This document shows, one piece after another, positions 11,086 to 23,390 of a DNA stretch of 45,704 bases. Origin of the DNA: Clostridiales bacterium (GTDB lineage Bacteria; Bacillota; Clostridia; Lachnospirales; Lachnospiraceae); NCBI GenBank assembly GCA_012839235.1, contig DUNS01000104.1, positions 1-45,704 on the forward strand, written 5' to 3'. Under the pieces are notes generated by a model. That model did no database searches and was not told where the DNA came from. It worked only from the letters and a program-made list of their open reading frames with translations. Numbering within the stretch: position 1 is the first letter of the stretch; each line of letters starts with the position of its first letter. The position numbers and the translations under genes are program-made.

Positions 11086-11117
11086 TGACCTCCTTCCCAA
11101 ACCAGATATATGATGCT

Positions 11118-11390
11118 GGGATCAAAAGCCTTGAAAGAAATAACCTTTGTTAATTTGCACTAATATAGAAAACCTTAGTAATATGAAAAATATTTCAATG
11201 AGCAACTGTTTTTTAGTCGTTGGTACTTAGAACACGTACTATGTGTTCGGGTCTGTCTTATAGACCCTATGTACACATTACGACTAAAACCAAGCGAGAG
11301 CGTGTTGCGAATGAAATACTTTTTCATATTACATAAGCTTATTAAATATGCAAATTAGCAAAGTCATTATTATAATTAGCTTTTGATCCC
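11118..11390 (+). repeat. Structured repeat element, copy A
   Basis: Copy A of a three-member family. The core (11202-11308) has a closing stem GCAAC/GTTGC and an inner stem TTTTAGTCGT/ACGACTAAAA. Inside are the conserved GGTACTTA, a hairpin GAACAC...GTGTTC (11230-11248), a variable hairpin GGGTCT...AGACCC (11249-11267) and AAGCGAGAGCGT (11292-11303). Outside the core, long imperfect arms continue: AATATGAAAAA-TATTTCA (11180-11197) against 11312-11330; CTTTGTTAATTTGCA (11145-11159) against 11349-11363; and GGGATCAAAAGC (11118-11129) against 11379-11390. The right arm runs into the last codons of accD. The arms of A and C are related in sequence. No coding capacity is seen. The identity is unknown: a structured RNA or a small hairpin-type mobile element. 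Confidence 0.75.
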
Positions 11391-12278
11391 TACATCATGT
11401 AATTTTAGTATCTTAGTCAAGGTATCTCTTAGATCTTCCCTTGTCACAATCTTATCTATAAAGCCGTGCTCCAGAAGAAATTCCGATCTCTGAAAGCCTT
11501 CTGGTAGCTTCTGTCCTATAGTTTGTTCAATAACCCTTGGTCCGGCAAATCCTATCAGGGCTCCAGGCTCTGCAAGTATTATATCACCCAGCATAGCAAA
11601 ACTAGCGGTAACTCCACCAGTTGTTGGATCAGTTAGTACGGTCAGATATAGTAATCCTGCCTCCTTATGCCTTGCCACTGCCCCACTAACCTTAGCCATC
11701 TGCATAAGAGACATAATACCCTCCTGCATTCTAGCTCCACCAGATGCAGTAAATACTACGACTGGTAGACCTTCCTTAGTGGCCTCCTCCAGTAATCTAG
11801 TCAGCTTTTCACCAATTACAGTACCCATACTTCCCATGAAAAACTCCGGCTCCATAACAGCAATCATAAGCTCTAAACCGGCGATCCTACCCTTCCCTAC
11901 TATTACTCCGTCATATAGGCCAGTCTTCTCTCTAGCTTTATCAAGCTTCAACCCGTAATCAGGAAAATCTAGGGGATCCTTGGTGACCATTTCTTTGTCA
12001 TACTCTTGAAATGTATCCTTATCCAGTAGCATCTCTAATCTATCCTTAGCAGATATCCTAAAATGATAACCACAGTCCTTGCAAGTATTATAATTAGAGT
12101 CCAGATTCTTAGTATAGATCATCATATAGCAATTAGGACATTTGGTCATAATCCCTTGGGGTACATTGGGCTTTTCTTCCTCCGGAATCTCCTTAGAAGG
12201 TCCCTGTATTTCCTGTGGTCTAGCACGATATATGTTAGAAACAGCATATTTTTTCGCCCTAAATGGATTAAAGTTCAT
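11376..12278 (-). CDS. accD: Acetyl-CoA carboxylase carboxyltransferase subunit beta
   Basis: This 300-residue CT-beta subunit is the partner of AccA. Its N-terminal zinc ribbon is intact: C47-x2-C50 and C66-x2-C69 (KCPNC and TCKDCGYHF). The crotonase-like core follows, with [25 protein letters not shown] and [14 protein letters not shown], the oxyanion-hole glycines. Its start codon lies 1 base after the accC stop, so translation is coupled. The C-terminal codons overlap the right arm of element A, and the inverted counterpart of these last bases lies 250 bases downstream. The protein ends at about the normal length (VGIKS), so the element has not visibly damaged it. Confidence 0.95.
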
Positions 12279-12279
12279 A

Positions 12280-13617
12280 TTACATCATTCCTTCTATCAA
12301 GCCTGTATTATAGGTTCCACTTATAACCTCACTTTGCTCCAAGAGCTCATACTGAAATTCAGCATTGGTATTTATGCCATCAATAACCATTTCCACCAAA
12401 GCTCTTCTCATACGCCTAAGGGCTTCTTCTCTAGAGCTTCCGTATGCAATGATCTTAGCTAACATGGAATCATAGTGCGGCGGAATTGTATATCCAGGAT
12501 ATATGGCGCTGTCCACCCTGATACCATAGCCACCAGGTAGTAGAAGATTATCCACCCTTCCAGGGCTTGGGATGAAGCCCCTCTTAGGGTCCTCAGCATT
12601 AATACGACATTCTATAGCATGGCCTTGAAACTTTATATCCTCTTGACGATATGACAATTCCTCTCCCGCTGCAATCTTTATTTGCTGACTAACCATATCA
12701 ATTCCTGTGACCATCTCTGTAATTGGATGCTCAACCTGAATTCTTGTATTCATTTCCATAAAGTAATAATTACCATCACTATCAAGTAAGAATTCGATAG
12801 TACCAGCATTACAATAGCCGGAGGCTTTAGCCGCCTTAACTGCTGCATTACCCATCTTCTTTCTAAGCTCCTCTGTCATAACAGGAGATGGGGACTCCTC
12901 CATAAGCTTCTGATTTCTTCTTTGAACAGAACAATCCCTCTCTCCTAGATGAACCACATTACCCAGGGCATCCGCTAGTATCTGAAACTCAATATGCTTA
13001 GGATTTATAATTAACTTCTCCATATAAAGTGTATCATCACCAAAGCCTGCCTTAGCCTCAGCCTTAGCAGAATTAAAGGCCTTCTCCATATCCTCTGGCC
13101 TATATACCGCCCTCATTCCCTTGCCACCACCACCTGAGCAAGCCTTAATCATAACAGGATACCCAATCTTCTCTGCTATGGTCATTGCATCCAGGGCACT
13201 AGCTACATTACCGTCAGAACCTGGTATTACAGGTACACCGGCTTTTTTCATAGTCTCCCTAGCAGTAGATTTATTACCTAACAGATCAATTGTATCAGCC
13301 TTAGGGCCGATAAATGTTATATTACAATCTTCGCACATCCTTGCAAATGAACTATTCTCCGATAGAAAACCAAAGCCGGGATGTATTGCTGTTGCTCCAG
13401 TTAGTACTGTTGCAGTAATGATATTTTGAATATTAAGGTAACTATCCTTGGACTTAGCAGTCCCTATACATACTGCTTGATCAGCAAGCATTACATGCAG
13501 AGCTTCCTTATCCGCCTCAGAATATACTGCTACAGTCTCAATACCCATCTCTCTGCAAGTACGAATTATTCGGACCGCTATCTCACCCCGATTAGCGATT
13601 AATATTTTATTAAACAT
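12280..13617 (-). CDS. accC: Acetyl-CoA carboxylase biotin carboxylase subunit
   Basis: This 445-residue ATP-grasp enzyme carboxylates the biotin on AccB using ATP and bicarbonate. It begins [21 protein letters not shown], has the glycine-rich ATP loop [12 protein letters not shown], the [16 protein letters not shown] catalytic segment and a C-terminal biotin carboxylase domain with [11 protein letters not shown]. The longest frame has eight more residues, but ATG 13617 is the family start and carries GAAAGG-CAGGG 13 bases upstream. It lies between fabZ and accD; its stop is 1 base from accD. It is complete, with no oddity. Confidence 0.95.
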
Positions 13618-13677
13618 CGCAACCACCCTGCCTTTCATCACACTACCTCCTGAAAAGTGGTAGGATTTATTTCATAA

Positions 13678-14100
13678 TTATTGTATGGCAAATGTAATAA
13701 CTGCTGAAGCTGCAATATCATCATCAACATATACTGCACCATTGCCCACTCCAAAGCCACCCTTATTCTTGATAATCTCAACTTCAAGGCGAAGTACATC
13801 TCCAGGAACAACCTGTCTTCTAAACTTAACCTTATCCATTCCACCAAAGTACATGATCTTTCCGGCATACTCCTTTAGGCTTAGCATAGCCACTGCTCCT
13901 GTTTGAGCCATCGCCTCCAGTATTAGAACTCCAGGCATTACAGGCTTATCTGGAAAATGTCCTGCAAAAAAAGGTTCATTCATTGATACACATTTTCTTC
14001 CTACTGCCCTAACTCCAGGCTCAAGCTCATCAATACGATCAATTAAAAGCATAGGGGCTCTATGGGGTATTATTTTTTTTATTTCTTCAATATTTAACAT
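13678..14100 (-). CDS. fabZ: 3-hydroxyacyl-ACP dehydratase FabZ
   Basis: This 140-residue hot-dog-fold dehydratase removes water from 3-hydroxyacyl-ACP to give trans-2-enoyl-ACP in each elongation round. The active-site His48 (FFAGHFPDKPVMPG) and Glu62 (LEAMAQTGA) are present. No FabA, FabM or second FabZ is in the window, so the route to unsaturated acyl chains is not visible here. The start is preceded by GAAAGG-TATGG at 13 bases. The ATG in that motif opens a three-codon frame (MVI) that stops on the base next to the true start. It lies between accB and accC, 23 bases from accB. Confidence 0.95.
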   Translation of the reverse strand: MLNIEEIKKIIPHRAPMLLIDRIDELEPGVRAVGRKCVSMNEPFFAGHFPDKPVMPGVLILEAMAQTGAVAMLSLKEYAGKIMYFGGMDKVKFRRQVVPGDVLRLEVEIIKNKGGFGVGNGAVYVDDDIAASAVITFAIQ

Positions 14101-14123
14101 TCAAATAACCATACCTTTCATCA

Positions 14124-14600
14124 TTATCTTATGATGAATAGAGGCTGGCCAAATTCAACCATCTGCTCATTAGACACTAGTATCTTTACAACCTCTCCAT
14201 CAAAATCACTTTCGATCTCATTCATCAATTTCATAGCCTCAATTATACAAAGGGTCTGACCTTTCTTAACCTTATCTCCAACCTTTACATAAGGTGGCTT
14301 ATCAGGTGCAGGGGATGCATAAAAGGTTCCTACCATAGGTGATATTACCCTTTCCCCTTGAACCTCCTCTATCTGGAACTCTCCAAGGCCCCCATTCTCA
14401 AGACTATTCTCTCTTGTAGCTTTATTCTCACATGTATTATTCTGTCCAATAGTATATCCCGGATTTCCTTGCTGAATTGTAGTTATATTTCCATTATTCT
14501 TTTCAAGACAAATCCTAAAGCCCTCTTTTTCAATCTCAATCTTTGTCAAATCGGTCTGATTCATCTCATGCATAAGTTCAAGAATTTTCTTATATTCCAC
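14124..14600 (-). CDS. accB: Biotin carboxyl carrier protein of acetyl-CoA carboxylase
   Basis: This 158-residue carrier shuttles carboxybiotin between AccC and AccA/AccD. Its C-terminal biotinyl domain has the EAMKLM motif with biotinylated Lys124. The thumb-like insertion is present (ASPAPDKPPYVKVGDKV). Residues 35-80 form a polar Gly/Asn/Gln-rich linker, as usual. The start is GTG at 14600 with GGAGG 7 bases before it. It begins 2 bases after the fabF stop, so translation is probably coupled. Confidence 0.95.
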   Translation of the reverse strand: MEYKKILELMHEMNQTDLTKIEIEKEGFRICLEKNNGNITTIQQGNPGYTIGQNNTCENKATRENSLENGGLGEFQIEEVQGERVISPMVGTFYASPAPDKPPYVKVGDKVKKGQTLCIIEAMKLMNEIESDFDGEVVKILVSNEQMVEFGQPLFIIR

Positions 14601-14602
14601 TA

Positions 14603-15844
14603 CTATACCTCCAAGTTCTTAAAAATGAGAGTGGCATTGTGGCCACCAAATCCCAAGGAATTAGACATTGTGTAGGAAAGATTAGCAACTTCTCTTCCAA
14701 CCCCAGGAACATAATCTAAGTCACATTCTTCATCCTGTGTATTTAATCCAATAGTTGCAGGGATAAATCCATCAGTAATTGCTTTTACACATACAATTGC
14801 TTCTACAGCTCCTGCTGCACCTAACAAATGCCCTATCATTGATTTTGTAGAGCTTATAGGTATACTATAAGCCTTCTCTCCCATTGCCCTCTTAACAGAT
14901 TCAGTCTCAAACTTATCATTTAAAGGAGTACTAGTTCCATGGGCATTGATATATGAAAGCTCTGCCGGTGTAATACCTGCCTCTTCCATAGCTAGTTTCA
15001 TAGCTCTCGCAGCCCCTTGGCCATCTGGAGATGGAGAAGTAATATGGTATGCATCACAGGTAGCCCCGTATCCAACCACTTCTGCATATATCTTAGCACC
15101 ACGGGTTATAGCGTGGTCATAATCCTCAAGAAGAAGGATACCTGCACCTTCACCCATTACAAATCCATCTCTATCCTTATCAAATGGAATAGAAGCCCTG
15201 TTCTTATCTGTGCTAGTAGATAATGCTGTTAAGGAGCTAAAGCCTGCTACTGCAAGAGGAGTAATTGATCCTTCTGTACCCCCTGCAAGTATTAGATCAG
15301 AGTAGCCATGCTTAATACTTCTATATGCTTCACCAATACTGTGACTTCCTGTCGCACAAGCAGTTACAACATTAGTACATACTCCCTTAGCCCCAAACTT
15401 AATAGCAACATTCCCTGCTGCCATGTTGGTTATAATCATAGGTATAAACAAAGGATTAATTCTCCTAGGTCCTTTATCCAATAGCTTTTGTTCTTCTTTT
15501 TCAATGCTTTCAATTCCACCTATACCAGAGCCTACTATAACGCCGAATCTCTCTTTATCCACCTTATCAAGATCAATATTGGAATCTTCAATTGCTTCTT
15601 TAGCTGCTACTATAGCGAATTGTGAAAAACGCTCCATTCTCTTAGCTTCTTTAAAATCCATATATTCCTTAGGATTAAAGTTCTTTACCTCTGCAGCTAA
15701 TTTAACTGCATATTCATCTGTTGGAAATGAACTTATGAAGTCTATGCCACAAGTCCCAGCCTTTACGGCAGTAAAAAATTCTTCTACATTATTACCAATA
15801 GGAGTAATTGCTCCCATCCCTGTTACAACAACTCTGCGATTCAT
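14603..15844 (-). CDS. fabF: 3-oxoacyl-ACP synthase II (FabF)
   Basis: This 413-residue elongating condensing enzyme joins malonyl-ACP to acyl-ACP. The Cys-His-His triad is in place: Cys163 in VTACATGSH, His302 in NAHGTSTPLND and His339 in SMIGHLLGAAGAVE. ATG 15844 is chosen over the in-frame TTG 15850 because the GGAGG lies 8 bases before it, whereas TTG would be too close. It is in the tight fabG-fabF-accB stretch. With no FabB present, it should carry all long-chain condensations. Confidence 0.95.
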   Translation of the reverse strand: MNRRVVVTGMGAITPIGNNVEEFFTAVKAGTCGIDFISSFPTDEYAVKLAAEVKNFNPKEYMDFKEAKRMERFSQFAIVAAKEAIEDSNIDLDKVDKERFGVIVGSGIGGIESIEKEEQKLLDKGPRRINPLFIPMIITNMAAGNVAIKFGAKGVCTNVVTACATGSHSIGEAYRSIKHGYSDLILAGGTEGSITPLAVAGFSSLTALSTSTDKNRASIPFDKDRDGFVMGEGAGILLLEDYDHAITRGAKIYAEVVGYGATCDAYHITSPSPDGQGAARAMKLAMEEAGITPAELSYINAHGTSTPLNDKFETESVKRAMGEKAYSIPISSTKSMIGHLLGAAGAVEAIVCVKAITDGFIPATIGLNTQDEECDLDYVPGVGREVANLSYTMSNSLGFGGHNATLIFKNLEV

Positions 15845-15863
15845 AAACAAATCCTCCTTTACC

Positions 15864-16604
15864 CTACATTACCATTCCACCGTCTACCTGTATTACCTGT
15901 CCTGTAATATAGTTGGCGGCTTCAGAAGCAAGAAAACATACAACACTTGCTACCTCTTGGGCTGAGCCAAATCTTTTTAATGGAATATTGGCAATGCTTG
16001 CTTCTTTCACCTTATCTGGAAGGCTATCAGTCATATCTGTTTCAATAAACCCAGGAGCCACCGCATTGACATTGATTCCTCTGCCGGCTAATTCTCTTGC
16101 AGCTGACTTAGTAAGACCTATAACCCCTGCCTTAGAAGCTGCATAGTTAGCCTGCCCTATATTGCCTGTAACTCCCACAATTGATGACAGATTAATAATC
16201 TTTCCACTTCTTTGCTTCAACATAACTGCAGCTGTGTGCTTTATGCAGAAAAATGTTCCCTTTAAATTAGTACTTATTACTTTATCAAAGTCTTCTTCAG
16301 AAATTCTAATAAGTAGGTTATCCTTGGTAATACCAGCATTGTTTACTAAGATATCTAGACGACCAAATTCTTTAACAGTTGTACTAACAAGGTTCTTGGC
16401 ATCTTCTTCCCTACTGATATCTCCACAAATTGCAATTGCTTCTCCACCAGCCTCTTTAATCTCAGCCAACAATCCTTCAACTTGAGCAAAACTGCTTCTA
16501 TAATTTATTACTACCTTTGCACCTGCACGAATTAGTTCCAGCACAACTGCTCTACCAATTCCTCTAGCTGCTCCTGTTACCAGAGCCACTTTTCCATTAA
16601 GCAT
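15864..16604 (-). CDS. fabG: 3-oxoacyl-ACP reductase FabG
   Basis: This 246-residue short-chain dehydrogenase uses NADPH to reduce 3-oxoacyl-ACP. It shows TGAARGIG (10-17), NNAG (88-91) and the catalytic Ser141, Tyr154 and Lys158 (NYAASKAG). The longest open frame begins 22 codons upstream, but ATG 16604 is the family start (MLNGKVALVTG) and has GGAAAGG 9 bases before it. The extra upstream frame has no alignment value. It is separated from fabD by 180 bases containing a long hairpin. Confidence 0.95.
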   Translation of the reverse strand: MLNGKVALVTGAARGIGRAVVLELIRAGAKVVINYRSSFAQVEGLLAEIKEAGGEAIAICGDISREEDAKNLVSTTVKEFGRLDILVNNAGITKDNLLIRISEEDFDKVISTNLKGTFFCIKHTAAVMLKQRSGKIINLSSIVGVTGNIGQANYAASKAGVIGLTKSAARELAGRGINVNAVAPGFIETDMTDSLPDKVKEASIANIPLKRFGSAQEVASVVCFLASEAANYITGQVIQVDGGMVM

Positions 16605-16668
16605 AACACTATCCCTTTCCATTAACACAACTTTATTAGGTAAGAGGTACACAAGAAAGTTAATGCAC

Positions 16669-16745
16669 ATATACGATTAATAGTAATTCTGGAGCCTAAG
16701 CTAAGCAAAGGGTTGGAGCAGAAGAATTGACTATTAATCATATAT
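16669..16745 (-). repeat. Long hairpin between fabD and fabG
   Basis: An imperfect inverted repeat with arms of about 26 bases: ATACGATTAATAGT-AATTC plus TGGAGC on the left, and GGAGCAGAAGAATTG plus ACTATTAATCATAT on the right. No T run follows. It sits in one of only a few wide gaps in the operon, so it may stabilise, process or attenuate the mRNA. Confidence 0.6.
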
Positions 16746-16783
16746 ATTAGAATTACTACAGAATGTCCCTATTACCTATCGTT

Positions 16784-17719
16784 TTATCTTAATGCAGATA
16801 CTGTAGCTTCTAATGAAGCTAGATCCTCCACATTATATATGCCTAGCTTACGGTCTATTTTCCTTACAAACCCTGATAATGTCCTACCAGGACCAATCTC
16901 CACAAAATTTTTAATTCCATCAGCAATCATTCTTCTGATGGTCTGCTCCCAGAGAACACTGCTCATTACCTGTCTATATAATAAATCTTTAACCTCATCC
17001 AAGCTTCCTATATAATCCCCATGAACATTGCTTATAACAGGGGTTACCATAGATGACAGAACAATCTTGTCAAGCTCAGCCTTAAGTTTTTCTGCAGCAG
17101 GTTTCAACATGGAAGTGTGAAAAGGTGCACTAACTGGAAGGTCAACCGCCTTTAAAGCTCCAGCCTCTACACAAAGCTTTTTAGTCTCCTCCACCGCTTC
17201 TATTTCTCCACCAATAACAATCTGTCCAGGACAATTAAAATTGGCTGCTTCAACTATTCCATATTTACTTCCTTCTTGGCAGGCTTTTACTAACTTTTCT
17301 TCAGATAGTCCCAGTATTGCTGTCATTTTCCCCAGCCCCTTAGGAACTGCTTCCTGCATATACCTACCTCTTTTTTGTACTAGAGGAGCTGCCTGTGATA
17401 ATGTTAATGCTCCACTAGCAGTAAGGGCGCTATATTCACCAAGACTTAATCCTGCCATTAGATCTGGGATAATATCATGTTGTGATAATACACTATAAGC
17501 TGCTATTGACATTGTAACTATAGCTGGCTGGGTATTTTCTGTTAGGTCCAATATACCCTTCTCACCATCAAATACCAATTTAGCCATATCCATGTTAAGG
17601 CTATCACTAGCTTCATCAAATGTTTTCTTAGCTATAGTAAAATTATCATATAGCTCCTTACCCATACCTACATACTGAGCTCCCTGTCCTGCGAACAAAA
17701 ATGCTGTCTTATCCTTCAT
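16784..17719 (-). CDS. fabD: Malonyl-CoA:ACP transacylase FabD
   Basis: This 311-residue transacylase loads malonate from CoA onto ACP. It begins MKDKTAFLFAGQGAQYVGMG, with the GQGAQ oxyanion loop (11-15), nucleophile Ser92 in GLSLGEYSAL and catalytic His201 in SAPFHTSML. An upstream in-frame ATG (17731) would add MVIS. ATG 17719 is preferred because the family starts there and it lies 13 bases after GAAAGG-CATGG. It follows fabK by 18 bases, so the two are co-translated. Confidence 0.95.
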   Translation of the reverse strand: MKDKTAFLFAGQGAQYVGMGKELYDNFTIAKKTFDEASDSLNMDMAKLVFDGEKGILDLTENTQPAIVTMSIAAYSVLSQHDIIPDLMAGLSLGEYSALTASGALTLSQAAPLVQKRGRYMQEAVPKGLGKMTAILGLSEEKLVKACQEGSKYGIVEAANFNCPGQIVIGGEIEAVEETKKLCVEAGALKAVDLPVSAPFHTSMLKPAAEKLKAELDKIVLSSMVTPVISNVHGDYIGSLDEVKDLLYRQVMSSVLWEQTIRRMIADGIKNFVEIGPGRTLSGFVRKIDRKLGIYNVEDLASLEATVSALR

Positions 17720-17737
17720 ACTAATAACCATGCCTTT

Positions 17738-18664
17738 CTAAAAGCTTGCTAGAAGCTTATCAGCCTCAGCAAACATTTCCTCGATTATCTCCTTACAGCT
17801 TTGCTCCTTTTTAACAAGGGCTGCAATCTGTCCTGCCATAACGCTACCATAATCCATATCTCCATCAACCACAGCACGGGCAAGAGCTCCAACTCCTAGC
17901 TTCTCTAATTCCTCTAGGGAGGCTTTATTAGCTTCAAGCTTTACATATTCCCTTGCAAGCTTATTCTTCATTATCCTTACGGGATGACCAGTGCTTCGAC
18001 CCGTCACAATAGTATCTATATCCTTGGCATTAATAATTTTCTGTTTGTAGTTAGGATGTATATTACATTCAGTGGCAGTTAAAAACCTTGTACCTACCTG
18101 TACTCCTTCAGCTCCTAACATGAATGCTGCTGCAAGACCTCGCCCATCTGCTATACCTCCAGCTGCAATAACAGGAACATCAACGGCATCTACTATTTGA
18201 GGAACTAAGGCCATTGTTGTAAGCTCACCAATATGTCCCCCAGCTTCTGTACCCTCAGCAACAACAGCATCTGCCCCACCACGAACCATTTTCTTTGCTA
18301 TTGCAACAGAAGGAACCACTGGTATAATCCTGATCCCATGTTCCTTCCACATAGGTATATATCTAGAAGGGGTGCCTGCTCCAGTTGTAACAACTTTAAC
18401 TCCCTCTTCACAAACCATGTGGGCTATTTCTTCAGAATAGGGGCTAAGTAGCATTATATTCACAGCAAAAGGTTTATCTGTTAATTCCTTTGTTTTTCTA
18501 ACTTCTTCCCTGACATAATCAGTTGGAGCAGTTCCACTGGCAATAATTCCAAGTCCCCCTGCCATCGAGACTGCACTTGCTAGGGAAGAATCAGAAATCC
18601 TTGCCATAGCTCCCTGAAATATCGGGTATTCTATATCTAGTAATTCACATATACGTGATTTCAT
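17738..18664 (-). CDS. fabK: Enoyl-ACP reductase II FabK (FMN)
   Basis: This 308-residue flavin-dependent enoyl-ACP reductase of the 2-nitropropane dioxygenase-like TIM-barrel family catalyses the last step of each elongation cycle. It begins MKSRICELLDIEYPIFQGAMARISD, then has AGGLGIIASG, EGTEAGGHIGE and PVIAAGGIADGRG, the FMN phosphate-binding segment. No FabI-type reductase is in the window, so FabK is the likely sole enoyl reductase, which usually means triclosan insensitivity. ATG 18664 fits the family start; GGAGG lies about 11 bases before it. It sits between acpP and fabD. Confidence 0.93.
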   Translation of the reverse strand: MKSRICELLDIEYPIFQGAMARISDSSLASAVSMAGGLGIIASGTAPTDYVREEVRKTKELTDKPFAVNIMLLSPYSEEIAHMVCEEGVKVVTTGAGTPSRYIPMWKEHGIRIIPVVPSVAIAKKMVRGGADAVVAEGTEAGGHIGELTTMALVPQIVDAVDVPVIAAGGIADGRGLAAAFMLGAEGVQVGTRFLTATECNIHPNYKQKIINAKDIDTIVTGRSTGHPVRIMKNKLAREYVKLEANKASLEELEKLGVGALARAVVDGDMDYGSVMAGQIAALVKKEQSCKEIIEEMFAEADKLLASF

Positions 18665-18709
18665 ATAATCTAAATCCTCCATATATAGTAAGCTAATATT
18701 AGATGTCAA

Positions 18710-18762
18710 AAGTCAGTAATTATTCTAGTTCTAATAGGAGAAGTATGATTAATTACTGACTT
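18710..18762 (-). repeat. Perfect hairpin between acpP and fabK
   Basis: AAGTCAGTAATTA and TAATTACTGACTT form a perfect 13-bp stem with a 27-base loop, 20 bases after the acpP stop. On the minus strand it ends CTTTTG, a poor T run. A partial terminator here would give more acpP than downstream mRNA, as acyl carrier protein is needed in excess. Confidence 0.6.
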
Positions 18763-18781
18763 CTAGCTCTTGAAATAGCAA

Positions 18782-19012
18782 TTAGTTGTTTCTTTTCTCA
18801 AGATATTTTTGGATATCTCCAATAGTATCGATTCCCTCTACGTCTTCTGTTGGGATCTCAATACCAAATTCCTCCTCAAGAGCCATAATGACCTGGAAAA
18901 GATCAAGTGAATCTGCATTCAAATCATTTTTCAGGGAAGTTGCTTCTGTAAGCTCCTCTTTTTCTACTCCTAGTTGCTCTGCTACTACCTCTTTTACTTT
19001 GTTAAAATCCAT
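18782..19012 (-). CDS. acpP: Acyl carrier protein
   Basis: This 76-residue acidic four-helix carrier holds growing acyl chains on a phosphopantetheine arm. The attachment site is Ser35 in NADSLDLFQ, followed by the usual MALEEEFGIEIP helix. Length and charge are typical. The start is ATG, 11 bases after AGAAAGG. It lies between fabH (115 bases upstream) and fabK, with a hairpin after it. No phosphopantetheinyl transferase gene is in the window. Confidence 0.96.
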   Translation of the reverse strand: MDFNKVKEVVAEQLGVEKEELTEATSLKNDLNADSLDLFQVIMALEEEFGIEIPTEDVEGIDTIGDIQKYLEKRNN

Positions 19013-19127
19013 GTTGTTTCCATCCTTTCTTGATAGCTAACCTACTATAATTGTTTTATCAATTTCTAAATAATTAGCTTTATATAAATAAGTTTCTTTC
19101 TTGGGCTGATATAGCCGGCTATTACTT

Positions 19128-20138
19128 TTAACTCCAGTCCAGTACAACTGCTCCGCTGGTCATACCTCCACCAAAACCTACAAGTATAACCTTGTCACCC
19201 TTACTTAGGCTACCTGCTCTTGATGCTTCATCAAGGGCTATCCCTATAGATGCAGATGATGTATTACCATAGCGATCCAAATTCATGAAAAACTTAGAGC
19301 TAGGTATATTGCAGTTCTTTGCAACTGCCTCTATTATCCTACTGTTAGCCTGGTGAGATATAATACATGATATATCCTCAGCCCTTAAGTCTGCCCTAAG
19401 TATAGCTTCTTTAATCAGTGCTGAGACATTGCGGACTGCATATTTAAACACTTCCTGTCCTTCCATCCTTATAACTGATGATTTCTTATTAAATCCCATA
19501 TCCTGCATACTTTGGGCAGCAGGCACAACATAAGGATTAGATATAGGCAATGCCTCACATTGTAAAATGGAGTGCTTTGATCCATCACTAGATAGTATGG
19601 ACGTAATGATTCCTTTATTATCCCCAGCTTCACTGGCTGACAGGACTACTGCCCCTGCTCCATCACCAAAGAGTACGCAGGTGGATCTATCCTCCCAGTC
19701 CAATATCTTAGATATAGCATCTACTCCTATTACAAGAGCCTTATTATACATACCTGTCTCAATAAATTGTGAGGCAGTAACAAGGGCATATACAAAGCCT
19801 GTACAAGCAGCATTGAGATCAAAAGCTGCTGCCCCATCTACCTTCAGTCTTCCCTGTACCATACATGCAGCTGAAGGCATAAAGTAATCCGGTGTAATCG
19901 TTGCACATATGATCAAATCAATGTCTTCAGGGTTAATATCAGCATTCTTTATAGCTGCTTTAGCAGCCTCATATGCCATGTCAGTTGTTGTATCCTTCGA
20001 AGATATTCTTCTTTCTTTAATTCCTGTTCGTGAACTTATCCATTCATCGCTAGTATCAACTAGTTTTGCTATATCATCATTGCTGATAATATTATCTGGT
20101 GCATAGCTTCCAGTTCCTATGATAACTGTTCGTCTCAT
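19128..20138 (-). CDS. fabH: 3-oxoacyl-ACP synthase III FabH
   Basis: This 336-residue initiating condensing enzyme joins acetyl-CoA (or a branched acyl-CoA) with malonyl-ACP. The Cys-His-Asn triad is complete: Cys112 in NAACTGFVYAL, His262 in ISHQANSRII and Asn292 in DRYGNTSSASIG. The start is ATG with GGAGG 9 bases before it. It is the first biosynthetic gene of the operon, 33 bases after fabT. Primer choice (straight or branched) cannot be read with confidence from the sequence. Confidence 0.95.
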   Translation of the reverse strand: MRRTVIIGTGSYAPDNIISNDDIAKLVDTSDEWISSRTGIKERRISSKDTTTDMAYEAAKAAIKNADINPEDIDLIICATITPDYFMPSAACMVQGRLKVDGAAAFDLNAACTGFVYALVTASQFIETGMYNKALVIGVDAISKILDWEDRSTCVLFGDGAGAVVLSASEAGDNKGIITSILSSDGSKHSILQCEALPISNPYVVPAAQSMQDMGFNKKSSVIRMEGQEVFKYAVRNVSALIKEAILRADLRAEDISCIISHQANSRIIEAVAKNCNIPSSKFFMNLDRYGNTSSASIGIALDEASRAGSLSKGDKVILVGFGGGMTSGAVVLDWS

Positions 20139-20171
20139 TATTTAGGCCCTCCTATAGCAAGAACGTATATA

Positions 20172-20636
20172 CTAACTATTTTCATTTTTCCCTAATATAT
20201 AGATATCCTTTAGATGATCATTAAGCTTTCTTAGTCCCGTGAGTAGGATTTCCTCCTCTTCAGGGGTAAATGCATCAATAATAGCGTGAACCATATCCAT
20301 ATGGAATTTTTCATGAATACGATAGGCTAGCTTCCCTCTTTTAGTCAGGCTGACATTGACAATTCTTCGATCAGCATTGCTACGACTACGTTCCATGTAT
20401 CCTTTTTTGACTAGTTTATCAACTGCTGTAGTCAAAGTACCCATGGTTATCTCTAAGGTCTGGGCAATTTCTGACATGGTCCTTGAACCATACATACCCA
20501 CCGCTTCAATTGTGTGGATTTCTGTTATAGATATGTCGCTGAAGGCACCATGCTTAATTGAATATTCTTCTATACGATTAATATCATCGTATATTTCTAC
20601 CAGCATGTTATTAATATCCTTCATTTTCTCTTTCAA
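20172..20636 (-). CDS. fabT: MarR-family regulator of fatty acid synthesis (FabT-like)
   Basis: This 154-residue winged-helix regulator has a recognition region SRTMSEIAQTLEITMGTLTTAVDKLVKKGYMERSRS and a wing with NADRRIVNVSLTKRG. Its place as first gene of an acc/fab operon, and the TTTGA-CAA-TCAAA palindrome at its own promoter, identify it as FabT-like. FabT of streptococci and lactococci represses the operon with acyl-ACP as co-repressor. The longest frame runs on to 20912 but enters element B and the promoter, so it cannot be right. TTG 20636 has AAGGAG 8 bases before it; ATG 20624 (MKDINNML) is the alternative. The function is inferred from context. Confidence 0.88.
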   Translation of the reverse strand: MKEKMKDINNMLVEIYDDINRIEEYSIKHGAFSDISITEIHTIEAVGMYGSRTMSEIAQTLEITMGTLTTAVDKLVKKGYMERSRSNADRRIVNVSLTKRGKLAYRIHEKFHMDMVHAIIDAFTPEEEEILLTGLRKLNDHLKDIYILGKNENS

Positions 20637-20676
20637 GTAATTCACTCCTTCATAGTAATTGCTTTGCAATACAAAT

Positions 20677-20693
20677 AGTTTGACAATCAAAAT
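20677..20693 (-). promoter_or_regulatory. FabT-type operator
   Basis: The palindrome TTTGA-CAA-TCAAA (20679-20691) matches the FabT box TTTGA-TTA-TCAAA in both arms and spacing. It begins at the -10 box of the fabT promoter and covers the start of transcription, an ideal repressor position. It is the only strong copy found in the operon. Confidence 0.8.
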
Positions 20694-20720
20694 AATAAAC
20701 CATTTGAGACTATATGTCAA
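20692..20720 (-). promoter_or_regulatory. Promoter of the fab/acc operon
   Basis: On the minus strand TTGACA (20715-20720, perfect) and TATTAT (20692-20697) are separated by 17 bases. This is one of the best promoters in the window. It lies about 55 bases before the fabT start and 28 bases from the end of element B. Confidence 0.85.
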
Positions 20721-20747
20721 TATATTTGTATAAATATTAAGTTGTGA

Positions 20748-20954
20748 GGTTACAATTCTGCCCATTAATGTAACGAAAAGGACCTGGGGAGAGAAATGTT
20801 CCCATTGTGAGACGCTCTCGCTTAGTTCCATTCGTAGCGGATACGTAAGAACACATAGAACGTGTTCTAAGTACCGACGAATGCAAATACTCACCATGGG
20901 AATCATTTTCACCCTGGTCCTTACTTTAGACTTTATGTAGGCAAAATTGTAACC
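20748..20954 (-). repeat. Structured repeat element, copy B
   Basis: Copy B, with the conserved core on the minus strand (20807-20894). The closing stem is GTGAG/CTCAC instead of the GCAAC/GTTGC of A and C. The inner stem is CATTCG/CGAATG. The core keeps CGTCGGTACTTA, the GAACAC...GTGTTC hairpin and AAGCGAGAGCGT. The outer arms pair over about 65 bases (GGTTACAATT-TGCC, AGGACC-GGG, TTCCCAT-GTGA) but are largely unlike those of A and C. Pairing kept while sequence changes is strong evidence of selection on structure. It ends 28 bases upstream of the operon's -35 box. Confidence 0.75.
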
Positions 20955-20969
20955 AATATAGGTAATAAG

Positions 20970-21018
20970 AAAACCAAGAACATAGACTTATGGTTAGTAT
21001 GTTTATATCCCTGGTTTT
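20970..21018 (+). repeat. Hairpin between elements B and C
   Basis: AAAACCA-G pairs with C-TGGTTTT and, inside it, AACATA pairs with TATGTT. Read on the plus strand the stem runs into TTTTTAA, terminator-like. No plus-strand gene precedes it, so its role is unclear. Confidence 0.4.
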
Positions 21019-21059
21019 TAACTCTTGGGAAATATTATTGAAGCTAAGCTACAAAAGCA

Positions 21060-21260
21060 CTTTGTTGATTTGCATACAAGAAGTATATCTTAAGTAATAA
21101 AAAACATATCTCGAGGCGCAACTGTTTTAAGTCGTCGGTACTTAGAACACGTATTTTGTGTTCTTACGTACCGCTACGTACTTAAATCAAGTGAGAACGT
21201 GTTGCGCCTGAAATATGTTTTTTCATTGCTTATATAAACGTAAAAATGCAATCAACAAAG
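21060..21260 (+). repeat. Structured repeat element, copy C
   Basis: Copy C, with the core on the plus strand (21118-21205). The closing stem is GCAAC/GTTGC and the inner stem TTTAAGT/ACTTAAA. It has CGTCGGTACTTA, the GAACAC...GTGTTC hairpin, a variable ACGTA-CCGC-TACGT hairpin and AAGTGAGAACGT. In that last motif both sides of the two-base-pair stem differ from A and B (GC-GAGA-GC becomes GT-GAGA-AC), a compensated change around a GNRA-type loop. The outer arms (CTTTGTTGATTTGCA at 21060-21074 against 21247-21260; AAAAACATAT-TC-GGCGC near the core) resemble those of A. It lies 21 bases after glnN and could also act as its terminator. Elements B and C, with the hairpin between, fill the 645-base gap before glnN. 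Confidence 0.75.
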
Positions 21261-21281
21261 TACTTGCACCAGCTGCTTCTG

Positions 21282-23390
21282 TTAGATTTCGAACAGCAAC
21301 TCCCCATAAGTCGGAACTGGCCATAGTTCTTTGTCTACGATTAGTTCTAGGGAATCTATTATAACTCGTAAGTTGTTCATGGCTGGTATGACCATGTCTT
21401 TGAAGTAGGTTGCTCTTTCAACACCATCCTTCTTTGATACTGCTACACTTACTTGAATTAATAGTTCTTTATTAGCTAACTCTGCTTGAGATAAGAAGTT
21501 CAAGGTTTCCTGTAATAATTCCTTTTGAACCTCAACATTAGCATCTGGTAGAGCTTGCTTTATGGAATTAATAGAGTCAGCCAAACATCTGGTATACTTG
21601 ATTACAGCAGGTATATACTGCTGGTTAGTCATATATATCATAGTTCTGGCTTCAATATTAATTGTCTTTGAATAGCTTTCATATAAAACCTCAGATCTAG
21701 AATGAAGTTCATTGGAATTAAATACATGGTGCTTACCAAACAGCTCAATGGTCTTGTCCGTTGTCAGAGCTGGAATAGCATCCACCATAGTTCTAATATT
21801 AGGTAGACCTCTCTTATTAGCCTCCTTCACCCATTCCTCAGAATAACCATTACCATTAAATACAATACGATTATGATCTGTACAGGACTTTTTAATTAAA
21901 TCATGGACAGCTAGGTCAAAGTTATCAGCACTTTCTAGCTCATCTGCCATATCCTTAAGTACATCTGCAACTATAGTATTGAGGACTGTATTAGTCATAG
22001 CTACTGACATAGATGATGCTACCATACGGAATTCAAACTTATTACCTGTAAATGCAAATGGTGATGTACGATTACGATCAGCTGCATCCTTTTTAAATTC
22101 TGGAATGGTATGTACACCTACATTAAATCTACCACCATCTTTACAGCTTCTAGCTTCACCAGTCTCAATTAATTGATTAAGAACGTCCTCTAGTTGGGAA
22201 CCTACATATACGGATATTATAGCAGGAGGGGCTTCATTCCCACCTAATCGATGATCATTACCAGGATTACTGGCCGATATACGAAGAAGCTCAGGATGTT
22301 CATCAACCGCCTGCAAAACAGCTGCAAAAAATAAAAGAAACTGAATATTTTCATGAGGTGTCTTACCTGGTTCCAAAAGATTCTTACCTGTATTAGTTAG
22401 AAGTGACCAGTTATTATGCTTTCCAGAGCCATTAACACCTGCAAATGGTTTCTCATGAAGGAGGCAAGCTAGACCGTGACGATTAGCAACCTTCTTCATA
22501 CATTCCATAATTAGTTGGTTATGGTCCGTCGCTATATTACCAGTTGTGAATATTGGGGCTAGCTCATGCTGAGCTGGAGCAGCTTCATTGTGCTGGGTCT
22601 TCGCAGCAACTCCCATCTTCCAAAGCTCAGTGTTTAGCTCACCCATAAAGGACGCCACTCTTTCAGTAAGACTTCCATAATAATGATCGTCCATTTCCTG
22701 ACCCTTTGGAGGCATAGCGCCAAACAAGGTCCTTCCAGTAAAGATCAAGTCATCTCTCTTAAGATACTTAGCTTTATCTACTAAGAAATATTCCTGCTCA
22801 GGACCAACAGAGGTAGTAACCTTATTCACGTCCTCATTACCAAATAACCTGCATATTCTAACAGCCTGTTTACTAATGGCTTCCATAGATCTAAGTAGAG
22901 GGGTCTTCATATCCAGGGCCTCTCCTGTATATGAACAAAAGGCAGTAGGAATACATAAGGTAACACCGGCTGAAGTCTCTCTTAAAAAAGCTGGGGAAGT
23001 ACAATCCCATGCAGTATATCCTCTTGCCTCAAAGGTTGCTCTTAATCCTCCTGAGGGGAATGAAGAAGCATCTGGCTCCCCCTTTACTAACTCCTTACCA
23101 GAGAACTCCATAATAATCTTACCATCACTGGTAGGGCTTATAAAGGAATCATGCTTCTCAGCGGTAATTCCTGTCATAGGCTGGAACCAATGGGTATAGT
23201 GGGTAGCTCCTCTATCAATTGCCCAGTCCTTCATGGCATTGGCAACTATTTCTGCAACGCCTGAATCTAAGTCCTCACCATTTTCAATGGTTTTCTTAAG
23301 AGCCGCATATGTTTTCTTTGGCAATCTCTCTGCCATTTTTGCATCATTAAATACATCAATTGCAAAAATATCTGTTAGCTTTTCTTCCAT
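21282..23390 (-). CDS. glnN: Glutamine synthetase type III
   Basis: This 702-residue GSIII makes glutamine from glutamate, ammonia and ATP. The length separates it from GSI (about 450 residues). Visible are the N-terminal GSIII-specific part ([14 protein letters not shown]), the metal-binding [24 protein letters not shown], the [15 protein letters not shown] loop and [14 protein letters not shown]. The start is ATG, 12 bases after GAAAGG-CAAGG. It follows a YesL-like gene by 25 bases, and element C lies just downstream. GSIII is common in Bacteroidetes and some clostridia. No PII gene or glutamine riboswitch is evident nearby. Confidence 0.95.

What the first reader, a model, noticed from the sequence alone, without database searches (positions are those of the whole stretch)
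11118..21260. A family of three structured elements with a conserved core and changing stems
Copies A (11118-11390, plus), B (20748-20954, minus) and C (21060-21260, plus) share, in the same order, CGTYGGTACTTA, a GAACAC...GTGTTC hairpin, a variable hairpin, and AAGYGAGARCGT. The helices around these motifs differ in sequence but still pair: the closing stem is GCAAC/GTTGC in A and C but GTGAG/CTCAC in B, and inner stems are TTTTAGTCGT/ACGACTAAAA, CATTCG/CGAATG and TTTAAGT/ACTTAAA. The small helix around GAGA is GC/GC in A and B but GT/AC in C, a paired change. This is what selection on an RNA (or folded single-strand DNA) leaves. I know no RNA family with this core and no protein is encoded, so it is a candidate new structured RNA or small mobile hairpin.
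Basis: partly seen in the sequence, partly recalled or inferred. Interest (0 to 1): 0.88.

Follow-up and report, generated by a model that had tools for sequence, protein, structure and literature searches.

The report
Jumping DNA hairpins with conserved RNA-like cap
Three hairpin-shaped stretches in this gut-bacterium genome belong to a large, apparently unreported family of small gene-less jumping elements, tens to hundreds of copies per genome in some members of one bacterial family, whose tip keeps the same folded shape while its letters change in matched pairs, so something in the cell probably still uses that shape.

Summary
A, B and C are three of at least 51 dispersed copies in the host genome. 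The family is common in Lachnospiraceae (30 of 99 genomes searched, host included, all in the host's family), reaches 262 arm matches in one genome, and no copy scanned reaches an Rfam gathering score over the core. Covariation is massive: in 99 aligned matches 27 of 29 pairs change on both sides and 94.2% of cells pair; 0 of 500 shuffles reach this. The core is a three-way junction with a GNRA mini-hairpin and a conserved internal loop. The copies are non-autonomous transposons: subfamilies differ in ends and target duplications (8 bp; about 7 bp) but share the core. In copies chosen by arm sequence the core is less diverged (4.1%) than the arms (11.3%). In GAM79 the core shares one transposon with TwoAYGGAY, an Rfam RNA of unknown function. 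Whether the cap works as RNA or as single-stranded DNA is unresolved: GNRA loops favour RNA; rare G-U pairs and no strand signal in G010 do not. No transposase, partner or transcript was found.

The parts
11112..11396 (+). Copy A, subfamily S1, whole element: long imperfect palindrome with structured cap. Ends GATGCTGGGATCAAAAGC / GCTTTTGATCCCTACATC resemble S1 ends seen in G010
   Evidence: no element at accD-accA in 29 of 29 relatives' loci
11193..11316 (+). Core of A as matched by model R1; carries one extra hairpin (GGGTCTG...TAGACCC) in the 3' strand of the internal loop
11376..11396 (-). End of A that now encodes the last six codons and stop of accD
   Evidence: (translation and junctions)
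20748..20954 (-). Copy B, subfamily S2 type, whole element; terminal repeat GGTTACAATT
20799..20903 (-). Core of B (closing stem GTGAG/CTCAC)
21040..21279 (+). Copy C, subfamily S1, whole element; right arm ends 2 bp from the stop codon of the gene at 21282-23390 (-)
21109..21213 (+). Core of C (model R1 match, E 6.2e-27)
21136..21173 (+). Most conserved hairpin of C: CGGTAC-TTA-GAACAC-loop-GTGTTC-TTAC-GTACCG, internal loop TTA/TTAC
21189..21200 (+). AAGTGAGAACGT of C: two-pair GNRA mini-hairpin plus flanking junction bases

Best explanation
A, B and C are copies of a family of small non-autonomous transposons of Lachnospiraceae. Shown: long inverted arms, defined ends and target-site duplications in subfamilies of two genomes, high copy number, a bias to gene 3' ends, and a cap that keeps one three-way-junction fold by paired changes while its letters turn over. 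Inferred: transposases supplied in trans move the elements; chassis with different ends carry the same cap; after insertion the cap folds on the + strand, most likely as RNA, and is bound by a conserved cell factor, because cores in resident copies diverge less than the arms beside them. The likeliest use is an RNA-level job at transcript 3' ends or boundaries that keeps such insertions tolerable. The factor and the exact job are not identified.
For: Mobility: S2 copies of G004 carry ends GTTACAGTTCAGCC and 8-bp duplications (13 of 24 listed end pairs agree at 7 or 8 of 8 bases, control 0.9%; 3 of the 24 are cross-pairings or chance pairings). S1 copies of G010: exact 7-bp direct repeats in 5 of 27 elements (one search gave 6 of 29 with one element counted twice, 0.04 expected, offset chosen as the best of many tried). 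No element at accD-accA in 29 of 29 relatives' loci (model search, 0 matches). Structure: 27 of 29 pairs with both-side changes, 772 cells, score 0.643 against 0.179 shuffled and at most 0.112 for slid controls. P6 loop: GNRA in 89 of 97 rows with loop letters, 89 of 92 four-letter loops (GAGA 34, GAAA 30, GCAA 9, GGAA 8, GGGA 6, GCGA 2). Core versus arms in 25 arm-selected copies: 4.1% against 11.3% for the arms (p 8e-8) and 8.2% for the P2 3' strand plus adjacent arm (p 0.002). Strand polarity: gene 3' ends within 200 bp lie to the right of the + core in S1 43:12, S2 17:5, others 51:28, S3 5:2 (p 3e-5, 0.017, 0.013, 0.45); no replichore polarity in A. sedimenticola, 29 hits. The same transposon in GAM79 carries the Rfam RNA TwoAYGGAY.
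Against: G-U pairs are rare for an RNA: 36 of 2756 cells in A3 (A-C 18, p 0.02). In G010, A-C mismatches (47) are no rarer than G-U (33), so these copies show no RNA-strand signal. The number of extra pair types is not above shuffles (79 of 500 as high). Not all of the cap is slow in G010: P5 12.3% (it covaries) and the P6 region 9.7%. Neighbouring transcripts mostly read the minus strand, not the strand with the GNRA loop, and no promoter or transcript was shown. Versions of 87-110 bp, too short for or without the core, exist, one with a perfect 8-bp duplication, so the core may not be needed for movement. Of 21 GAM79 elements read, 10 have a cap in which the loop strand and the GNRA loop are both replaced by hairpins and 1 has no cap. 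No transposase with these ends was found in the loci read.
Confidence: 0.55

Rival explanations
1. The cap acts as folded single-stranded DNA or a cruciform: a transposase, integrase-like or replication protein recognises the hairpin on one strand, and pairing is selected for Watson-Crick DNA pairs.
For: Very few G-U pairs (36 of 2756 cells) and no G-U preference in G010; the element is a near-complete palindrome; copies lie in either orientation to genes; GC-GAAA-GC mini-hairpins are, from memory, very stable in DNA too.
Against: GNRA loops with purine at position 3 are, from general knowledge, an RNA habit; duplications at the ends point to double-strand cut-and-join, not to single-strand peel-and-paste; no replichore polarity in one genome; a version too short for the core carries a duplication.
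Confidence: 0.27
2. No function: pairing is kept by a mutational process. Fold-back (template-switch) synthesis copies one arm onto the other, and gene conversion between copies spreads changes.
For: Almost only Watson-Crick exchanges; new hairpins appear inside loops (A; GAM79 variant caps); the same extra hairpin sits in S1 copy A and in S2 copies of C59, C237 and C192, which suggests exchange between copies.
Against: Unpaired core positions (TTAG/CTTAY, GNRA, junction bases) are conserved across genera, although fold-back copying alone would not conserve them; the core diverges less than the adjacent arm, which is paired too.
Confidence: 0.13
3. Independent sRNA or riboswitch genes that happen to be multicopy.
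For: Conserved three-way junction with GNRA loop; good covariation.
Against: No recurrent neighbouring gene in 59 loci (largest cluster 3 loci); both orientations, target duplications, hundreds of arm copies in one genome.
Confidence: 0.05

Closest known systems
TwoAYGGAY RNA (Rfam RF01731, clan CL00106)
   Same: Orphan structured RNA of gut Clostridia with a poorly conserved outer stem and a conserved tip; in GAM79 it is multicopy (30 hits) and shares one transposon with this core, 8 of the 30 within 250 bp of a core hit
   Different: Different tip (two AYGGAY loops). A, B and C give no RF01731 match; where RF01731 was found near a core it lies outside the core
MITEs; small bacterial repeats such as BOX, RUP, SPRITE, ERIC, Correia elements
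   Same: Typically under 500 bp, inverted ends, duplications, no gene, intergenic, stem-loop transcripts (review PMC10969869, passages read; PMC3049150, passages read)
   Different: Here a three-way-junction cap is conserved by covariation across many genera and shared by chassis with different ends and duplication lengths; the passages read describe no such case
IStrons (group I intron plus insertion sequence)
   Same: A structured RNA riding on a DNA transposon, described as making insertions harmless (PMC4227781, title and start of abstract in a search listing only)
   Different: No intron fold recognised by Rfam here, no open reading frame, insertions between genes
Integron attC sites and IS200/IS605 ends (recalled, not looked up)
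   Same: Function through a folded strand with variable stem sequence and conserved unpaired bases
   Different: Duplications and inverted terminal repeats are present here; the sequence core is unrelated as far as recalled

Membership tests
MITE (non-autonomous DNA transposon) | terminal inverted repeats | tested here: met
   GTTACAGTTCAGCC (S2), GATWTGAGTGTCAAAAGC type (S1), TAAATGGAAAGTTAG (GAM79, both ends found in 21 of 26 loci tested)
MITE (non-autonomous DNA transposon) | target-site duplication | tested here: met
   8 bp in S2/G004, 7 bp in 5 of 27 S1/G010 elements. Not evident by eye at A, B or C and not clear in GAM79 units
MITE (non-autonomous DNA transposon) | no transposase gene inside, short length | tested here: met
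   about 200-290 bp; GAM79 units 465-698 bp
MITE (non-autonomous DNA transposon) | an autonomous relative with the same ends | tested here: inconclusive
   six G004 loci with single ends read, none with a transposase; at least two are broken elements; no genome-wide search made
TwoAYGGAY RNA RF01731 | reaches the curated Rfam score | tested here: not met
   A, B, C: not listed at gathering or at E up to 5; the neighbouring module in GAM79 does match
Any described Rfam family | gathering-score match over the core | tested here: not met
   window, 20 diverse loci (only a T-box elsewhere in L082), 6 loci and 19 loci
REP/RAYT or IS200/IS605 elements | no target duplication (recalled) | tested here: not met
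   duplications present in S2 and S1
REP/RAYT or IS200/IS605 elements | Y1 transposase partner (recalled) | not tested
   no Y1 search was made
Retron or other reverse-transcriptase RNA | linked reverse-transcriptase gene | tested here: inconclusive
   no recurrent neighbour in 59 loci; no explicit search for reverse transcriptases

The most novel reading that the evidence does not exclude
Orphan structured RNAs of gut Clostridia, this core and TwoAYGGAY among them, are interchangeable RNA modules of a modular transposon system: one folded cap, with a GNRA loop and a receptor-like internal loop that work together, is carried by chassis with unrelated ends and transposases, lands at gene ends and stop codons, and acts on the transcripts of the genes it lands behind.
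Probability: 0.3. Interest if true: 0.88.

Novelty: new variant of a known kind. Interest (0 to 1): 0.72.

Why it matters
A repeat at this density (262 arm matches in a 4.1-Mb genome) in a bacterial family common in the gut would bear on gene 3' ends, assemblies and annotation genome-wide, yet nothing was found in print under the searches made (openly licensed PMC papers only). A fold conserved by paired changes across transposons with different ends separates 'what moves the element' from 'what the cell reads in it', which is testable. It also gives a context to TwoAYGGAY, catalogued in 2010 and called a family of unknown function in 2014 (passages of PMC2864571 and PMC4333381): in GAM79 it rides on the same mobile unit. 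Named strains that hold the pattern include A. sedimenticola CBA3638, GAM79, Anaerobium acetethylicum GluBS11 and Coprococcus catus VPIC661.

Tried and rejected
Rfam E-value hits on A-C (MIR2630, SNORD58, SNORD102, SNORA25, mir-728, snoZ168; all below their gathering scores) were rejected as chance. A gene partner: no recurrent neighbour in 59 loci. Phage or plasmid carriage: copy C found nothing in 50,697 phage and 72,556 plasmid records (blastn); two viral contigs held the pattern and were only scanned with R1 and Rfam. Orthologous retention: among own loci and 49 relatives' loci one site has both flanking genes shared (own and G013), holding different subfamilies; L108/L118 look, by eye, like one locus in two Mediterraneibacter species. 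Replication polarity: none in A. sedimenticola, counted by eye with ori assumed at base 1 and terminus at half (11 plus: 9 minus, then 4:5). tRNA calibration of the G-U share failed, no structures parsed. A first mismatch count over whole arms gave more A-C than G-U (197:93); with three Watson-Crick pairs on each side it reversed (9:26), so that test depends on filtering and I give it little weight. Copy-number figures are lower bounds (40 and 10 candidates scored per genome). The constraint estimate (1.7% against 13.3%) is biased because copies were chosen by core score; one search replaces it, with 5 of 30 loci dropped (four broken elements, one contig end). Its arm figure of 13.8% included a few host bases and the P6 region; one search gives 11.3% without them. 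Tip-deleted caps were kept.
Full report
What is there. Each is an imperfect palindrome with internal loops, capped by a branched tip. From the outside in: arms; closing stem P2 (GCAAC/GTTGC or GTGAG/CTCAC); long hairpin P3-P4-P5 with conserved YGGTAC-TTA-G...C-TTAY-GTACCR and a two-base bulge YT; a mini-hairpin P6 of two pairs closed by GNRA (AAG-Y-GNRA-R-CGT). Folding z-scores are -13.7 (A), -9.2 (B) and -9.5 (C), with 0 of 200 shuffles as low for each. Of the three, only A has an additional hairpin in the loop.

More copies. A pattern search found five exact cores and 0 in the reversed control. Thirteen copies (A2) gave 97.1% paired cells and 12 of 29 pairs with both-side changes, 0 of 500 shuffles; extra pair types did not exceed shuffles (192 of 500 as high). 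A covariance model from them (R1) found 63 matches at E up to 1 in the host genome; 51 have E up to 5.3e-9 and were analysed; six of the weakest overlap stronger hits on the other strand. By eye the 51 fall mainly into three kinds with quite different arms: S1 (GCAAC-TG), S2 (GTGAG-TATTTGCATTCG) and S3 (GAGACCGTTTGTCGCCATCGG).

Range. Of 99 genomes (host included) 30 match: 18 of 34 in the genus, 12 of 27 in other genera of the family, 0 of 38 in other families of the order. With a second model (R2), 12 of 391 genomes of the class match: the host, ten of the same family, and G272 of another family with nine weak hits. Named strains include A. sedimenticola (29 hits) and GAM79 (15 hits).

Covariation. 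In A3 (99 matches from 91 loci of relatives, GTDB and viral contigs) 27 of 29 pairs change on both sides, 772 cells do, 94.2% pair, and the score is 0.643 against 0.179 in shuffles and at most 0.112 in slid controls; 0 of 500 shuffles reach these four, while extra pair types are not exceptional (79 of 500). The alignment was fitted to the model, which favours the structure, and the rows are related. P6 loops are GNRA in 89 of 97 rows with loop letters (89 of 92 four-letter loops).

RNA or DNA. GNRA, with a purine at position 3 of all 89, speaks for RNA. G-U pairs speak less clearly: 36 G-U against 18 A-C of 2756 cells in A3 (p 0.02), 20:10 in own copies (p 0.10) but 33:47 in G010 (p 0.15). Overall G-U is rare. 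I recall several per cent as usual in structured RNAs, and could not calibrate this here.

Mobility. Two chassis thus share one cap. G010 holds 262 arm matches against 3 for the control. Broken forms are common: single arms, deleted tips, short core-less palindromes. At accD-accA, copy A is absent in all 29 relatives' loci read, and the model finds nothing in them; in the window the element end supplies accD's last six codons and stop.

Constraint on resident copies. To avoid choosing by core quality I took 30 G010 loci by an exact 21-base arm match; 25 could be aligned. Divergence from consensus is 4.1% in P2-P4 of the core, 12.3% in P5 (which covaries), 9.7% in the P6 region (enlarged in this genome), 8.2% in the P2 3' strand plus adjacent arm, 8.9% in the middle arm block and 12.6% in the end block. 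Core against arms without host flanks and without P6: 4.1% against 11.3%, p 8e-8; against the adjacent 3' stretch p 0.002. Gene conversion could contribute.

Polarity. In 251 distinct cores, gene 3' ends lie to the right of the + core 145 times and to the left 84 times (p 7e-5). Within 200 bp the ratio is 43:12 (S1), 17:5 (S2), 5:2 (S3, not significant), 51:28 (others), 116:47 together (p 6e-8). Genes were taken as long open frames, not annotations. Neighbouring transcripts thus mostly read the minus strand of the element. Replichore polarity was not seen in A. sedimenticola. Inverted pairs under 700 bp apart in the hit lists are minus-then-plus: L108/L118 (apparently one locus in two species), L120, L141, L157, L168, L174 (one partner cut by the contig end), L206, L212, L214, B/C of the window, C293, G210:C28; I saw no plus-then-minus pair under 700 bp, one at about 800 bp (G184:C2), and several same-direction neighbours (C299, G013:C1, L178, G006). 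This was counted by eye, from partly capped lists, after noticing the trend.

The modular units of GAM79. Here the core sits in 465-698 bp units with ends TAAATGGAAAGTTAG...CTAACTTTCCATTTA (both ends found, up to four mismatches each, in 21 of 26 loci) next to TwoAYGGAY, an Rfam RNA. GAM79 has 30 TwoAYGGAY hits; 8 lie within 250 bp of 8 of the 15 core hits, all divergent. Of 21 elements read, 10 have the usual cap (two of these without the TwoAYGGAY part), 10 have a cap in which the 5' loop strand and the GNRA loop are both replaced by hairpins, and one (L447) has no cap. L447, L455 and L460 also carry a further hairpin region. TwoAYGGAY also lies near cores in L106 (about 1 kb) and L206 (3 of 19 loci scanned, the third, L172, being GAM79 itself). 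Passages on TwoAYGGAY call it probably an RNA (PMC2864571) and a family of unknown function, perhaps CsrA-binding (PMC4333381); they do not call it mobile.

Verdict. Shown: a mobile, gene-less element family with a cap under structural conservation. Inferred: transposition in trans; selection on resident copies; RNA as the acting form; a role at transcript boundaries. Not found: transposase, binding partner, transcript, or a prior description (the 3161 candidates of PMC8040213 could not be compared by sequence, passages read).

Noticed in passing
G485 (GAM79, AP018536.1), 30 places; L444-L461: TwoAYGGAY RNA (RF01731) is multicopy and rides on 465-698 bp units with common inverted ends: an orphan Rfam RNA that looks mobile.
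   Followed up: partly
L437:3303-3464: A Clostridiales-1 RNA (RF01699) lies about 0.7 kb from a core/TwoAYGGAY unit in GAM79.
   Followed up: no
L351, L362 (G272, another family of the class): Nine weak matches; the two read have an ACTTAG-CTTRCGTATTTTGYAAG hairpin and a GCGTAAGC mini-hairpin: a remote relative or look-alike.
   Followed up: partly
L178:4452-5089 (Anaerobium acetethylicum): Four cores in tandem with a 178-bp period, same orientation.
   Followed up: no
L398-L404 (G006): Elements with an additional copy of the P4-P5 hairpin beside the cap, and an array of several modules within about 850 bp.
   Followed up: partly
window 11193-11316; G000 C59:6275-6398, C237:1680-1801, C192:32-153: A near-identical extra hairpin GGGTCTG...TAGACCC in the loop of S1 copy A and of S2 copies: exchange between subfamilies.
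   Followed up: no
L087 (own) and L057/L341 (G013): An intergenic site with both flanking genes shared holds an S2 element in one species and an S1 element in another.
   Followed up: partly
L418-L427 (A. sedimenticola): S3 copies about 95% identical but with similarity ending at different points on both sides; not the fixed ends expected of a simple transposon.
   Followed up: partly
L107, L127, L131, L163, L205 and others: MAGs titled Gastranaerophilales, Muribaculum or Muribaculaceae hold the pattern; possibly mis-titled bins.
   Followed up: no
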